Source: Alphaproteobacteria bacterium (lineage in GTDB: Bacteria; Pseudomonadota; Alphaproteobacteria; Rs-D84). From it: a stretch of DNA of 64,000 nucleotides. A program made the position numbers and the translations under genes. The notes under the pieces are model-generated. The model saw only the letters and a program-made list of their open reading frames with translations. It had not been told where the DNA came from and made no database searches. Positions 28,333 to 34,461 of this stretch are shown here, one piece after another (within the stretch, counting starts at the first letter, position 1; each line of letters opens with the position of its first letter). The stretch lies in contig JAFTPS010000010.1 in NCBI GenBank assembly GCA_017463185.1, positions 1 through 64,000 on the forward strand, written 5' to 3'.

Positions 28333-29010
28333 TTATGTGTGTTTTGCCAGTAAATCTTTCCATTTTTGTGGTGCGTTTACTTCATCAAAATAATCTTTCA
28401 AGAAATTGGCTATCGTTTTATGTTTCTTTTCGGCGTATTTACGACCGGGTTCAGTTAAACACATATCACGTAAATGAAATATTTTAACAAAAAAATGATT
28501 TACACAGGGGTCAACTTTTGATTTTCTGTATGTGTCAGCATCCATTTCTTCTGGAAAACAATCCGAATCAAAAAATGGCTCGTCACTGCCTGAACGATAT
28601 TCCATACAGCGCAACATACCAATCGCCCCAGATGCATCGCACATATCTGCATCGGATACAATTGCACCTTCAACTCCGTGTGCTTTGATTCCTTTTAGTC
28701 GTTTGCTGTATCCAATAGTTTTTACAATGTTGATGCATTTATCACAGAAATCGTCATCAAATCCAGAATTCGCCAATATGCGTCTGGTGTTGGTCATCAA
28801 GCGTTCTGATTCTTCGCCGAATAATTTATAGTCGTCGCAATCGTGCAACAGTGCCGCAGCGGCAACCAAATCACGATTGATGGACGGAATCTCGTCGCAA
28901 AATTTCATAGCTGTATTATAAACGCGAAAGACGTGTTTATCATCATGTCCATTAGAATTATCTTTAAGCAATTCAGAAACGGCTTTTTTTATATATTCAA
29001 TACCCGTCAT
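28333..29010 (-). CDS. HD-domain phosphohydrolase
   Basis: Start at 29010, where AAAAAGG lies 7 bases upstream; the open frame runs to 29094. About 225 residues with the HD metal-binding pattern: His in DDKHVFRVYNTA, His-Asp in ALLHDCDDYKLFG and Asp in VSDADMCDASG. Members hydrolyse nucleotides or phosphoesters in the cytosol. The substrate is unknown. A perfect 10-bp inverted repeat lies just upstream (29031-29052) and probably binds a regulator. A second HD protein is at 35208-35819. Confidence 0.82.
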   Translation of the reverse strand: MTGIEYIKKAVSELLKDNSNGHDDKHVFRVYNTAMKFCDEIPSINRDLVAAAALLHDCDDYKLFGEESERLMTNTRRILANSGFDDDFCDKCINIVKTIGYSKRLKGIKAHGVEGAIVSDADMCDASGAIGMLRCMEYRSGSDEPFFDSDCFPEEMDADTYRKSKVDPCVNHFFVKIFHLRDMCLTEPGRKYAEKKHKTIANFLKDYFDEVNAPQKWKDLLAKHT

Positions 29011-29030
29011 ACGCAAAACCTTTTTGTTGT

Positions 29031-29052
29031 TTGATACCAATTTTGGTATCAA
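29031..29052. promoter_or_regulatory. Inverted repeat, candidate operator
   Basis: TTGATACCAA-tt-TTGGTATCAA, two perfect 10-base arms, 21 bp upstream of the HD-domain gene start on the minus strand. No T run follows, so it is not a terminator. Confidence 0.6.
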
Positions 29053-29129
29053 TTTCTGTATGCAAAATTTATACCATAAATAATTCCAACACACAACATT
29101 TTTTCATGGGGCGCAGTTCTAATTATTGA

Positions 29130-29408: not shown

Positions 29409-29465
29409 AGATTTTTACTGCCCCCCCAACATCTGTCTTTTCAATGCTAATACGGGGGACTGCCA

Positions 29466-29534
29466 AATCGTCTCAAAAAACATTGCAAATCGTCTCAAAA
29501 AATGATACGATTCTGACATAAAAGTGAGACGATT
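29466..29534. promoter_or_regulatory. Promoter and four-site operator of the Fic gene
   Basis: AATCGTCTCA occurs at 29466-29475 and 29488-29497. Its inverse occurs as TGATACGATT at 29503-29512 (one mismatch) and TGAGACGATT at 29525-29534. Starts within each pair are 22 bp apart, so the array is symmetric about 29500. A promoter TTGCAA (29483-29488), N17, TACGAT (29506-29511) lies inside it. The last site abuts the ATG. A bound repressor would cover both the promoter and the start. Confidence 0.8.
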
Positions 29535-30554
29535 ATGACAAAAAGACAAGATTTTATATTACAATTTATAAAACAGCACCCAAATACCAACAGCGCTGCA
29601 ATCGTTGAATATATGGCAAATGCGTGGGCAGAAAAAAGCTCTCGCGCCACTGTTTTACGTGATATTGATGCACTGATATCTGGTGGAATGGTCGTAAAAT
29701 CTGGCTCGGCACGTGCAACGACGTATGCGCCCGCAATTGATATAGAATCTTACTTTGCAATTGACCCAGACAATCGCACATTGAAACACGAATACTTCAA
29801 TTTTGACATTTGGGACATGATGCACGATTTGTTTAGTGCCAAGGAATTATCCGAACTGGACATGCAAAATAAGACATACAGACAAAACAAAGCAGAATTA
29901 TCCCCAACGGAATTGAAGAAAGAAATTGAACGTCTGACAATTGAATTTGCGTGGAAATCGTCCAAAATAGAAGGTAATACATACACCCTGTTGGATACAG
30001 AACGCCTGATAAAGGATAAAACCGAAGCAGCAGGCAAAAAGAAAGACGAAGCCATAATGATTTTGAATCACAAGGCGGCGCTGGATTTTATTTTTCAGCA
30101 GCCGGATTTCTTTGAACAAATCACAATCGCCAAAATAGAACATATTCACAGATTACTGACAGGGGAACTTGAGATAGAAAACGGTATCCGCCAAAGACGT
30201 GTCAGAATCATTGGTACAAACTATCGCCCACTGGATAACAGACAGCAGATAATGGAAGCGTTGGAAAAAATGGTTGAACTGATAAATGCCTTTACTCATC
30301 CATTGGAAAAGGCACTGGCCGCAGTATTGCTGATTTCGTATATTCAACCGTTTGAAGATGGAAACAAGCGCACAGCACGTACAGTAGGCAATGCGTTATT
30401 GTTGGCCGCCGACTATTGTCCATTGTCCTATCGCAGTGCAGACGAGATAGAGTATAAGAAAGGCATGATATTATTTTACGAGCAGAACGATTGGTCGTAC
30501 TTCAAAACAATATTCACCGACCAGTTCCGTCAAGGAATAGAAAAATATTTCTGA
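29535..30554 (+). CDS. Fic-family protein with N-terminal winged helix
   Basis: 339 residues. Residues 1-70 form a helix-turn-helix of winged type (NSAAIVEYMANAW, then SRATVLRDIDALISGGMV). Residues 135-150 carry the class II inhibitory motif SSKIEG (Ser142 to Gly147). The Fic core motif at 271-282 reads QPFEDGNKRTAR, against the usual HPF.DGN.R..R, so the catalytic His is Gln271. The protein may therefore not transfer AMP, or may act by another chemistry. It most likely represses its own promoter through the symmetric sites at 29466-29534. Terminator at 30559. Confidence 0.85.
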   Translation: MTKRQDFILQFIKQHPNTNSAAIVEYMANAWAEKSSRATVLRDIDALISGGMVVKSGSARATTYAPAIDIESYFAIDPDNRTLKHEYFNFDIWDMMHDLFSAKELSELDMQNKTYRQNKAELSPTELKKEIERLTIEFAWKSSKIEGNTYTLLDTERLIKDKTEAAGKKKDEAIMILNHKAALDFIFQQPDFFEQITIAKIEHIHRLLTGELEIENGIRQRRVRIIGTNYRPLDNRQQIMEALEKMVELINAFTHPLEKALAAVLLISYIQPFEDGNKRTARTVGNALLLAADYCPLSYRSADEIEYKKGMILFYEQNDWSYFKTIFTDQFRQGIEKYF

Positions 30555-30558
30555 CATA

Positions 30559-30583
30559 AAAATCCCCCATCCAAGGGGGATTT
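30559..30583. terminator. Bidirectional terminator
   Basis: AAATCCCCC-atccaag-GGGGATTT hairpin between the convergent fic-like gene and the lipoprotein gene 30605-32137. Confidence 0.75.
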
Positions 30584-30604: not shown

Positions 30605-32137
30605 CTACTTCGCGGCCCCAAAAGCTACGTTCATACGTATTTCGCCTTCTGGAACAGTTTCAACATACTGTGTCACACCGTTGACCTCGTTTGGATTAGC
30701 GTTCACACCATAGTATGAAATTTCCAATTTACCATTTACTGTACTGTTTTCGTCATAACCGCCACCATTATAATTGCCGGTAATATAGTTATCTACAGTT
30801 TTTTCAGATGCGGCAACACCATCTACAAACACACGATAGTTGTTATCAACATTTTCCCCATTAGAAAAAGATATGCTGGCTGTGCTATCGCTTGTTTTTA
30901 CAATTTCTACATCATACCAATTATTTTCAGAAAAATTCATATTGATAGTTTCTGTACCATCTGCAAACACCAAGGTAGCATCTGCCCCCAAGGAAAGTTC
31001 ATCGCCAGAGTCGTCGCTTCCTGCCACCGCTCCAACGGCATATCCAGCAAATTCGTGACGACCACTAAGCTCTGACCTTGCTATCTTCTTGTCTGCATAA
31101 CCACCTGCAAATGGGGTGATAGAATTTTCCGTTCCCTGAACGGCGCCAGACGATAATTCAGATTCTATCAGGGCGATTTTCATTCCACCAAAATCAGAAT
31201 ATCTCAAACCGTATTCAGCCCCATAAGTTTGAACGGTGACAGTTCCTTCAAGTTTTCTATCCTTTAACACAGCCTCTTGAACCAATTCAAAAACCTTGTC
31301 TTCTTTGCGCGTAAAAGTTGTTGTGCTGTCTGGGTTGACACTAACACCTTCGCCATTATCAGACACATACGACACCATATCTGCCGCTATGATACTGCCA
31401 TCTTCCCCAAGTCCGAACGTCAAAACATCTAACGTACCTTCACCGTCATTTGCACTTGAAGCCAAGGTCATTTCTACACCACTCAGGTCAAATTCCTTGT
31501 ATTGCATATCTTCTTTGGTCTGCTCAAAATCGTCTTTCAAGTCACCACCAATAATACCTGTGATAAACCCTGCCAGACCTGCACAATCGTCAGAGTCTAA
31601 AAAGCTATCAAAATCCCCCGCGCTGCCGCCAATAAGTGTAAAGGCATCTTTCAGGTCATTGATAAATTTGTTGTATGCTTCTTCACCTTGTTTCTTGTAT
31701 TCATTCATTTTAGCCAACAAATCTTCGTCCGATTTATCAAACCATCCCATGTGATTTATCTTGCCCTTGGCCCATTCCCAACGTTTATCATTATCCATAC
31801 CATGACCTGTACGCAAAGAATATGTGGCGGCTGATGTTTCTTCGTCTTGGTATGTTTTGCCCAATGTCTGTTCAACCATATCAATCAATTCTGCACGATT
31901 ATCCAATGCAATGCCTGTCACAGATGCATTTGATGCCCGAACAGTATCGCTAATCGTTTCCGTAATCAATACTGGTGCTTCTATGGTTGGTACATCTGGG
32001 ACGATTGGCGTATCTGGGGTGTTTGGTGTTTCTGGGATACTTGGCACATCACCAATGCCGGCACCACCACCTGAACCGCCACTGCCACCACATGCGGCCA
32101 GTGCTAAAACAGATGTCAATAATACAAGTTTTTTCAT
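30605..32137 (-). CDS. Putative Slam-dependent surface lipoprotein 2
   Basis: 510 residues with lipobox LAAC at Cys16, followed by a Gly/Ser linker (GGSGGSGGGAGIG) and a Pro-rich spacer. The C-terminal 130 residues are beta-rich and end in ISYYGVNANPNEVNG...NVAFGAAK, which resembles the last strands of the TbpB-type eight-stranded barrel (FYG..A.E..G...FG) that Slam recognises. The central part (about 100-330) is partly helical and acidic, and I do not recognise it. AAAGGAGC precedes the ATG, 26 bases after the Slam gene. Likely displayed on the outer face of the outer membrane; ligand unknown. Confidence 0.75.
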   Translation of the reverse strand: MKKLVLLTSVLALAACGGSGGSGGGAGIGDVPSIPETPNTPDTPIVPDVPTIEAPVLITETISDTVRASNASVTGIALDNRAELIDMVEQTLGKTYQDEETSAATYSLRTGHGMDNDKRWEWAKGKINHMGWFDKSDEDLLAKMNEYKKQGEEAYNKFINDLKDAFTLIGGSAGDFDSFLDSDDCAGLAGFITGIIGGDLKDDFEQTKEDMQYKEFDLSGVEMTLASSANDGEGTLDVLTFGLGEDGSIIAADMVSYVSDNGEGVSVNPDSTTTFTRKEDKVFELVQEAVLKDRKLEGTVTVQTYGAEYGLRYSDFGGMKIALIESELSSGAVQGTENSITPFAGGYADKKIARSELSGRHEFAGYAVGAVAGSDDSGDELSLGADATLVFADGTETINMNFSENNWYDVEIVKTSDSTASISFSNGENVDNNYRVFVDGVAASEKTVDNYITGNYNGGGYDENSTVNGKLEISYYGVNANPNEVNGVTQYVETVPEGEIRMNVAFGAAK

Positions 32138-32163
32138 GTTTTGCTCCTTTTGTTATGTTGTTA

Positions 32164-33522
32164 TCAGAATCTTTGTTGCATGGTAAATTCAATCGCCGTC
32201 TTGTTATATTCACGTTGCCATATATTTGAATCCCGTTGTGTATAGCTGAATGTAATTGTCGGCACAAAGCCCCATATATCCAATTTGTTGTTTGATAGTG
32301 ACAGAGCATAACGATGTGTAAAGTCCCGCTCGGTTATTTCCTTGAATTGATTGTTATCCACCGTCCAACGCGCATCATCATACAGCGACCAATATACTGA
32401 CGGCTCAAAATATGCGTGAAATCCCCATGGCAATTCTGCACCCAACCCCACAGATAAACTTGGTTGCCAGTATGCGTATATTGGACTGGCGGTATCTTCG
32501 CGGGTAATACCGGCACGCAGATTCATATAAACACTTGCGCTAAATGAATATGTCAGGCGCATGTTTGCTGAGTATGTCTGACCGCTCAAAAAATCCCCAT
32601 ACAGGTCATATTCGTTATTCATGGCGCGCAGATATAATCCACCCGACAATCTGCGTGTAAAGTCATAATTTGTATCCAATCGTGCGCCCACAGACCAGTT
32701 GTATCTTTCCCATCCATACCAACGCCGCGCCGCGATACCTGCCAACCAAATATCCCCACGATTCCAAACAAAGCGTGGCCCCGTAGATGCACCGATATAC
32801 AGGTCATCAAATTCGTGTTTGTCGTATATATTGCTGTAAAGATTGATGTCTGATTTCCATCGCCACTGGTCAGACAATTTGAATTCATAAGACCCGCCCA
32901 ATGTCAGATTTGTCCCGATTGCAGATTCCGGTTCATTCAAATCACGACACATCAGCCCGAACATAGTCGCCACACATTCTTGACCGCCGGCGGCATTATT
33001 TACATTGTTATCTGGCGCGGCCCCAATATTGAACCATACATTCCAATTTTTGTTCTTGCGTACGATGTACCGATAATAATTCATAAGTCCGCGTGCATTT
33101 TCCGGCAAATCTTTCCCCGCCATGGCCAAACGCAGGTGATAGTCGGCACGTGACCATTGTTCGGTGTGTATATAACACGTTGCCAGTTCAAAGCGTATAC
33201 GCGCCAGGTTCGGTTGGTCATCCAGTATCTTGCGATATATCTTGATTGCGGATTCATAATCACCACGTTTTTGGGCAATCTGTGCCAGTAAAAACCAGCG
33301 TTCTATTTCCAGTGCCACATTATTCATTTTCGGTGTCTGGGTCAGGATTTGCAACGCATGGTCATAATCCCCATGGTCAACCATTGTTCCGGCCAGTTGC
33401 ATCGCCTGTGTCGTGGTCATGGTGATTTCTTTTGGGGTGTTTTTTGTTTTGGTATCAGGTTTTGCCCAGGCGACCCCAGGCAAAACCATAACCAACGCAA
33501 AGATTAAACAATACAGACGCAT
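32164..33522 (-). CDS. Surface lipoprotein assembly modifier (Slam, DUF560 / SlipAM)
   Basis: 452 residues. Signal peptide of 20 residues ending in AWA. Residues about 35-150 are TPR-like repeats (GDYDHALQILTQ, GDYESAIKIYRKIL, ARIRFELATCYIH). A linker NYYRYIVRKNKNWNVWF and the segment GAAPDNNVNNA match the start of the Slam barrel, and the remainder is a beta barrel with many alternating aromatic strands ending in a C-terminal Phe (TMQQRF). Slam moves lipoproteins such as TbpB and HpuA across the outer membrane (type XI secretion). It lies between two lipoprotein genes, with no gap after the first and 26 bases before the second. Confidence 0.85.
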   Translation of the reverse strand: MRLYCLIFALVMVLPGVAWAKPDTKTKNTPKEITMTTTQAMQLAGTMVDHGDYDHALQILTQTPKMNNVALEIERWFLLAQIAQKRGDYESAIKIYRKILDDQPNLARIRFELATCYIHTEQWSRADYHLRLAMAGKDLPENARGLMNYYRYIVRKNKNWNVWFNIGAAPDNNVNNAAGGQECVATMFGLMCRDLNEPESAIGTNLTLGGSYEFKLSDQWRWKSDINLYSNIYDKHEFDDLYIGASTGPRFVWNRGDIWLAGIAARRWYGWERYNWSVGARLDTNYDFTRRLSGGLYLRAMNNEYDLYGDFLSGQTYSANMRLTYSFSASVYMNLRAGITREDTASPIYAYWQPSLSVGLGAELPWGFHAYFEPSVYWSLYDDARWTVDNNQFKEITERDFTHRYALSLSNNKLDIWGFVPTITFSYTQRDSNIWQREYNKTAIEFTMQQRF

Positions 33523-34461
33523 TTACTGGGCCACTTTCCCACCAAACGTAGAATGGAAATGAACAGTATTGCCAATCGCACCTTCCAGGTCATACACCCC
33601 AAGTTCAGCAGTCGCTTCACTGGCTGTGGCATCTTCACCATAAAAATTCACCGAAACAGACGCGTAACCCATATCGTCCATAGAAATAGGTTCTGACACG
33701 TTCGCCAGTGCAAATGTATTATCTATGTCTACATTATCTGGATTGGAAAATGCAATATTCTGTCCTGTAGTATCTGTGGCACTATTATATCTAACTTTGT
33801 ACCATTTGTCTGCATCCGATTTTGTAAAATCCATTACCAATGTATACGCACCTGTTGTGCCATTGAAAACCAGATTTGCATCATCTGTATTTGTTATCAT
33901 AACATCCGAACCATCCGTAATGTCGGACCCAATCACAGCCACCGCGCTTCCTGTAAAAGAATTTGTACCGTTGACGGTTTGAATCTCTTTATCTGAATTT
34001 CCTGCCAAAAGAGGCGCCCATGTTGCTTCTGTTTCATATCCTGACACCATCGTTTTTACATACATCATACCAAAGTCGGCAAATTTCAGACCGGCACGTC
34101 TGCCATACAGTTGAACCGCACCGTCTTCTAATACTCCTTTATTTTCGCCATCAGGATATTCTATACTTGAAATCTTGCCCGTTTCTGGAACAACATGATA
34201 TGTGACACCGTTTGTTTCGCCTTCTGGCGTTTCCCAAGTTTCTGCTAATGCAATAATTTGTCCTTTGTCATTTGTGCTTACAACATAGTCCCCGTCAAAG
34301 GCAACGTTTTCTACTGCGGTAGCTCCACCGATTTCGGGTATGATTGGTGTAGTGTTTCCTGTAGGTGCCCCGCCAATACCGGCACCACCACCCGAACCGC
34401 CACTGCCACCACCACATGCAGTCAATGCTAAAATAGATGTCAAAATCGCAAGTTTTTTCAT
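33523..34461 (-). CDS. Putative Slam-dependent surface lipoprotein 1
   Basis: 312 residues with lipobox LTAC at Cys16 and a long Gly/Ser linker (GGGSGGSGGGAGIGG). The mature part is all beta. The last 60 residues, with SVSVNFYGEDATASEATAEL and HFHSTFGGKVAQ, match the FYG..A.E..G...FGG end of TbpB-type barrels. First gene of the Slam operon, preceded by candidate attenuator B and a good promoter. GGGAG lies before the ATG. It is probably a surface binding protein; ligand unknown. No TonB-dependent receptor lies beside it, unlike tbp or hpu loci. Confidence 0.75.
   Translation of the reverse strand: MKKLAILTSILALTACGGGSGGSGGGAGIGGAPTGNTTPIIPEIGGATAVENVAFDGDYVVSTNDKGQIIALAETWETPEGETNGVTYHVVPETGKISSIEYPDGENKGVLEDGAVQLYGRRAGLKFADFGMMYVKTMVSGYETEATWAPLLAGNSDKEIQTVNGTNSFTGSAVAVIGSDITDGSDVMITNTDDANLVFNGTTGAYTLVMDFTKSDADKWYKVRYNSATDTTGQNIAFSNPDNVDIDNTFALANVSEPISMDDMGYASVSVNFYGEDATASEATAELGVYDLEGAIGNTVHFHSTFGGKVAQ

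What the first reader, a model, noticed from the sequence alone, without database searches (positions are those of the whole stretch)
29466..30554. Fic protein with Gln in the catalytic position and a symmetric four-site operator
The motif reads QPFEDGNKRTAR instead of HPF..., while the inhibitory SSKIEG motif is kept. The promoter is covered by four 10-bp sites, two in each orientation, spaced 22 bp and symmetric around 29500. The winged helix at the N-terminus is the likely binder. The Fic domain may act as the sensor of a repressor rather than as an enzyme.
Basis: partly seen in the sequence, partly recalled or inferred. Interest (0 to 1): 0.7.

Follow-up and report, generated by a model that had tools for sequence, protein, structure and literature searches.

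The report
Self-repressing Fic gene with catalytic glutamine
This gene makes a two-part protein, a DNA-binding head on a Fic enzyme body whose catalytic histidine is a glutamine; it very probably switches off its own gene through four sites in its promoter, and it belongs to an old, widespread and untested branch of the Fic family that follows the same plan.

Summary
ORF 29535-30554 (339 aa) is a winged-helix + class II Fic protein with Q271-PFEDGNKRTAR, SSKIEGN and four 10-bp sites (22 bp apart in each pair) symmetric about 29500; no match in 3000 shuffles. The array is kept, with the same 22/13-14/22 geometry, in relatives down to about 47% identity, while the site letters drift and unrelated flanks begin right outside it.

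The finding is broader than reported. In my sample all 55 members of this Fic subfamily carry Gln (always with NKR) and all 30 other Fic proteins His; the Gln proteins form one clade (support 100/99). Of 43 Gln-Fic genes with the winged helix, 35 have their own promoter array; 0 of 6 without it do; 6% of control genes do. In the window's genome the site occurs in no other promoter checked.

Best reading: a self-contained, autorepressed single-gene module. The winged helix governs dosage; the Fic domain is under strong purifying selection (dN/dS about 0.03) and is more likely the output than a mere sensor. The chemistry is unknown. Known parts: Gln clade 'D2' (2015) and the autorepressing His-Fic CccR (2022). 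Their linkage as a family-wide rule appears new.

The parts
29466..29475 (-). operator site 1, TGAGACGATT on - strand
   Evidence: kept in L004, L005, L007, L017, weak in L018, lost in L006
29483..29488 (+). probable -35 element TTGCAA
   Evidence: TTGCWW-N16/17-TANNAT kept in 6 of 7 orthologues; below the consensus scanner's threshold; inference
29488..29497 (-). operator site 2
29503..29512 (+). operator site 3, TGATACGATT (one mismatch)
29506..29511 (+). probable -10 element TACGAT inside site 3; would explain the G-to-T mismatch of that site
   Evidence: inference
29525..29534 (+). operator site 4, ends at the start codon, overlaps the expected ribosome-binding region
29535..30554 (+). winged-helix Fic gene, 339 aa
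29538..29732 (+). winged helix, residues 2-66 (third helix 37-49, wing 53-66)
   Evidence: AlphaFold2 model; weak Pfam HTH hits
29958..29978 (+). inhibitory-helix motif SSKIEGN, residues 142-148
   Evidence: S142, E146, G147, N148 invariant in 18 diverse Gln-Fics
30345..30380 (+). FIC motif QPFEDGNKRTAR, residues 271-282, Gln in place of His
30563..30579 (+). terminator-like hairpin just after the stop; weak T tract

Best explanation
It is a self-contained, horizontally moving single gene: operator and promoter, winged-helix Gln-Fic protein, terminator. Inferred mechanism: the winged helix binds the four half-sites, which overlie the -35, the -10 and the ribosome-binding region, so the protein represses its own transcription and is kept at a low level. 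The Fic body is folded like class II Fic proteins, keeps the nucleotide-site residues and the inhibitory glutamate, and is under purifying selection, so it is a working domain and probably the output of the module, not just a sensor. With Gln in place of the general base it is unlikely to be an ordinary AMPylase. It may bind a nucleotide or a modified protein, act as a slow or hydrolytic (deAMPylase-like) enzyme, or do another transfer reaction. Whether its ligand also changes DNA binding is open. Shown here: the array, its conservation, its link to the winged helix, the Gln clade, selection, mobility. Inferred: binding, repression, the role of the Fic domain. My estimates: autorepression about 0.85; Fic as output rather than mere sensor about 0.6.
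For: Array beyond chance. Same 22/13-14/22-23 spacing upstream of orthologues at 96 to about 47% identity (three of the four sites in one of them), while letters drift from TGAGACGAT to TGATACGAA to TGATAGGAT. 35 of 43 winged-helix Gln-Fic genes have a significant array against 0 of 6 without the winged helix and 6% of 80 control genes. L014 joins a 46%-identical winged helix to NUDIX and hydrolase domains and has related inverted sites (2 of 3000 shuffles as good). Paired sites occur only at the Fic promoter in five genomes, and eight of nine single sites elsewhere lie inside ORFs (one not fetched). Homology to relatives starts at the operator (29454 or 29466) and stops at the stop codon or terminator (30554 or 30567) with different flanks. 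dN/dS about 0.03 for the Fic part. 22 invariant columns, including Q271, D275, N277, K278, R279, R282, S142 and E146, in 18 diverse members. One Gln clade, 100/99. Model matches FICD at Z 27. Precedent: CccR autorepresses through 10-bp inverted sites 26 bp apart (PMC9755527); here sites 1-3 and 2-4 are inverted and 27 bp apart.
Against: No binding, expression or activity data. A consensus promoter scan does not report the proposed promoter. The 43 loci are not independent and start codons were chosen mechanically. 8 of 43 show no significant array. That the Fic domain is the output rests on selection and on the lack of other target promoters, not on any substrate.
Confidence: 0.62

Rival explanations
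1. Pure ligand-sensing repressor: the Fic fold is a pseudoenzyme that binds a nucleotide or modified protein and thereby controls DNA binding; there is no catalysis.
For: His, the general base, is absent in the whole clade; the winged helix is fused and the array present in most members; active-site residues kept, as a binding site would need.
Against: No second target promoter in the window's genome, so nothing to regulate except itself. Gln-Fics without a winged helix share the same site. The inhibitory Glu is invariant.
Confidence: 0.25
2. An active toxin or phage-defence effector held in check by autorepression and by the inhibitory helix, like CccR or SoFic, with Gln still supporting some transfer reaction.
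For: PADLOC SoFic model 1e-19 and PDC-S04 1e-15; members on plasmids and viral contigs; patchy single-gene distribution, 5 full-length copies in 183 genomes of the family; CccR and Sofic are toxic autorepressed or autoinhibited Fics (PMC9755527, PMC12249575).
Against: His-to-Ala mutants of CccR and Sofic lose toxicity; the PADLOC hits reflect the shared Fic domain; no defence island seen around the gene; no toxicity data.
Confidence: 0.3
3. A hydrolytic or antagonist Fic (deAMPylase-like), in which the invariant inhibitory Glu positions water and Gln is not needed as a base; it may undo the action of ordinary Fics.
For: Invariant Glu; in FICD and CbFic2 the inhibitory Glu supports deAMPylation (PMC6408439, PMC10628234); one viral contig has a Gln-Fic overlapping a His-Fic (L066); the window's genome also holds a His-Fic, L001.
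Against: Only one tandem pair among the loci checked; the catalytic His matters in known Fics.
Confidence: 0.2
4. The repeats are a chance or unrelated feature.
For: Two-copy short repeats are common in AT-rich DNA.
Against: 0 of 3000 shuffles; conserved geometry in diverged relatives; family-wide association.
Confidence: 0.02

Closest known systems
Fic clade D2 of Khater and Mohanty 2015 (PMC4454073)
   Same: His replaced by Gln; consensus Qx[FY]x[DE][GV]NKR matches this protein and its relatives
   Different: described as usually single-domain Doc-like proteins with no regulation; here most members carry an N-terminal winged helix, an inhibitory helix and a promoter array. That D2 and this clade are the same set is inferred from the motif
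CccR of Yersinia pseudotuberculosis (PMC9755527)
   Same: class II Fic fused to a DNA-binding domain; autorepressor on inverted 10-bp sites over its promoter
   Different: His kept (HPFGNGNGRTVR), DNA-binding domain C-terminal, two sites 26 bp apart, secreted, AMPylates FtsZ
SoFic / Sofic and CbFic2 (PDB 3eqx, 3zcn, 8cil; PMC12249575, PMC10628234)
   Same: class II Fic with inhibitory helix; CbFic2 has a DNA-binding winged helix
   Different: His kept, C-terminal regulatory domain, no operator array described in the passages read
FICD/HYPE (PDB 6i7k)
   Same: closest solved fold and sequence (Z 26.9; phmmer 3e-15)
   Different: eukaryotic, TPR not winged helix, His kept

Membership tests
Fic/DOC fold family (PF02661) | Fic domain above the curated cut-off | tested here: met
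   50.8 bits against cut-off 24; fold match FICD Z 26.9
Canonical AMPylating Fic | HxFx[DE]GN[GK]R with catalytic His | tested here: not met
   QPFEDGNKR
Canonical AMPylating Fic | AMP transfer to a target | not testable with these tools
   needs protein
Class II Fic | inhibitory helix [ST]xxxE[GN] N-terminal to the FIC motif in the same chain | tested here: met
   SSKIEG, residues 142-147; invariant Ser and Glu
Gln-Fic clade D2 | consensus Qx[FY]x[DE][GV]NKR | tested here: met
   QPFEDGNKR; one clade with 48 other Gln rows, 100/99
Gln-Fic clade D2 | usually single-domain | tested here: not met
   N-terminal winged helix in this protein and a matching N-terminal part in 43 of 49 genes tested
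CccR-like autorepressed HTH-Fic | DNA-binding domain fused to Fic and inverted sites in own promoter | tested here: met
CccR-like autorepressed HTH-Fic | measured binding and repression | not testable with these tools
   needs EMSA and reporter
FicTA toxin-antitoxin (class I) | adjacent antitoxin gene supplying the inhibitory helix | tested here: not met
   helix is in the same chain; homologous cassette holds one gene
SoFic phage-defence system | SoFic model match together with catalytic His and C-terminal domain | tested here: not met
   domain-level match 1e-19 over residues 104-323, but Gln not His and the protein ends with the Fic body

The most novel reading that the evidence does not exclude
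The Gln-Fic clade is a distinct enzyme or switch class: Gln plus Lys in the FIC motif and an invariant inhibitory Glu create a new reaction or nucleotide-gated transcription switch, packaged as autorepressed single-gene cassettes that spread among bacteria, plasmids and prophages.
Probability: 0.35. Interest if true: 0.85.

Novelty: new variant of a known kind. Interest (0 to 1): 0.6.

Why it matters
Fic proteins are read as His-dependent AMPylases. Here a whole clade in several phyla has a fixed Gln, keeps the other active-site residues, and is mostly wired as its own repressor with a readable operator. That gives an immediate handle (promoter fusions, EMSA on a known site) on a group whose function has been an open question since it was noticed in 2015.

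Tried and rejected
A wider regulon: paired sites were found only at the gene's own promoter; single sites elsewhere sat inside ORFs. Partner gene or antitoxin: none in the conserved cassette. Conserved neighbourhood: the flanking HD gene is itself patchy and lies elsewhere in relatives. Sigma-70 consensus scan did not report the promoter. Single-protein scan of viral contigs found nothing; the alignment-based scan found 18 loci. A Bacteroidota-centred genome search was not possible. Paper searches gave no experimental study of a Gln-Fic; only openly licensed papers are held. Tandem Gln/His Fic pairs: one case only.

Full report
What is there. The window holds a 339-residue ORF at 29535-30554 on the + strand. 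Pfam finds a Fic domain at residues 196-289. An AlphaFold2 model made with 16 relatives has mean pLDDT 91.7. It shows a winged helix at residues 2-66 and a Fic body; the closest solved folds are FICD (Z 26.9) and other class II Fic proteins such as 3cuc, 4rgl and SoFic. The FIC motif is QPFEDGNKRTAR, residues 271-282, and the inhibitory motif SSKIEGN, residues 142-148.

The array. Four 10-bp sites lie at 29466-29475, 29488-29497, 29503-29512 and 29525-29534, the first two in one orientation and the last two in the other, 22 bp apart within each pair and symmetric about 29500. Shuffles of the region never gave four sites (0 of 3000). TTGCAA (29483-29488) and TACGAT (29506-29511), 17 nt apart, are a probable promoter. 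The -10 would lie inside site 3 and would explain why that site alone has T for G. Site 4 ends at the start codon. The promoter is an inference from conservation; a consensus scan does not list it.

Conservation. Full-length copies were found in 5 of 183 genomes of the same family, and more distant ones in other families of the class. All keep Gln. Their upstream regions keep the four sites with spacings 22, 13-14, 22-23 in L004, L005, L007, L017 and L018 (site 1 of L018 is weak), and three sites in L006, while the letters change from TGAGACGAT through TGATACGAA to TGATAGGAT. Against two relatives, DNA similarity starts at 29454 or 29466 and ends at 30567 or 30554, with unrelated flanks on both sides. 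By eye the neighbours are metG-like and dnaA-like genes in L015 and accC-like and recF-like genes in L016. The operator and gene therefore travel as one unit of about 1.1 kb.

The array belongs to the winged helix. L014, a 548-residue protein of the same bacterial family, joins a winged helix 46% identical to this one to NUDIX and alpha/beta-hydrolase domains, and its promoter has related inverted sites (2 of 3000 shuffles as good). I then tested 130 nt upstream of 43 Gln-Fic genes with an N-terminal winged-helix part: 35 have a significant array, 33 with at least four sites, and the motif differs from gene to gene. None of six Gln-Fic genes without that part do, and 6% of 80 control genes from the same loci do. 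The loci are not independent and start codons were picked mechanically, so the percentages are rough. Some His-type Fic genes with C-terminal DNA-binding domains also show repeats upstream (L001, L011-L013), and CccR is a proven case (PMC9755527), so arrays go with the DNA-binding domain, not with Gln.

Gln is clade-wide. Of 85 Fic proteins examined, 55 have Gln and all of these have NKR; 30 have His, 27 with NGR and 3 with NKR. This sample was built around the window protein and is not a census. The 49 Gln rows in the tree form one clade with support 100/99; members with the winged helix form one subclade (95/87) and those without another (97/88). In 18 diverse members Q271, F273, D275, N277, K278, R279, R282, S142, E146, G147 and N148 are invariant. 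dN/dS of the Fic part is about 0.03 against either close relative; synonymous sites are near saturation for L016.

Targets. In the window's genome the paired site occurs only at this promoter. Four relatives likewise have it only at their own Fic gene. Nine single sites occur elsewhere; eight were checked and lie inside ORFs.

How it probably works. The winged helix binds its four sites and represses its own promoter. Sites 1-3 and 2-4 are inverted with 27 bp between them, close to the 26 bp of CccR, but which sites one dimer joins is unknown. Because nothing else seems to be regulated, and because Gln-Fic domains occur without the winged helix, I favour the Fic domain as the output whose dose is controlled. 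What the Fic domain does without the catalytic His is unknown. The Gln clade was noted by sequence in 2015 as clade D2, motif Qx[FY]x[DE][GV]NKR, said to be usually single-domain and of unknown function (PMC4454073). I found no experiment on such a protein in the openly licensed papers searched.

Verdict. Observation confirmed; autorepression strongly supported by comparison; sensor-not-enzyme unproven. The combination of fixed Gln, kept inhibitory helix and family-wide self-operator is a new variant of a known kind.

Noticed in passing
L066 1911-2651 and 2648-3415: On a viral contig a Gln-Fic without a winged helix overlaps the start of an ordinary His-Fic, a possible Gln/His pair.
   Followed up: partly
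L014 1486-3129: A winged helix like that of the window protein is fused to NUDIX and alpha/beta-hydrolase domains, with a related operator: a portable autorepressor head on different bodies.
   Followed up: partly
L001 (own genome, contig 1) 2335-3163: Just downstream of the genome's other Fic gene (His type, C-terminal winged helix) lies an array of 12 units of 66 nt, probably CRISPR.
   Followed up: no
window 30605-34461, - strand: A Slam-type surface-lipoprotein exporter (SlipAM, E 6e-34) sits between two lipoprotein genes with near-identical GGSGGSGGGAGIG leaders and no Pfam match: likely exporter with two substrates.
   Followed up: partly
window 28333-29094: The HD-domain neighbour is also patchy in the genus (6 of 59 genomes) and lies in different surroundings, so this region collects mobile single genes.
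   Followed up: partly
L011, L012, L013 upstream of start: His-type Fic genes, one of them shown to have a C-terminal MerR-like domain, have repeated CTTTATAGTT / AACTATAAAG upstream, so autoregulation is likely there too.
   Followed up: no
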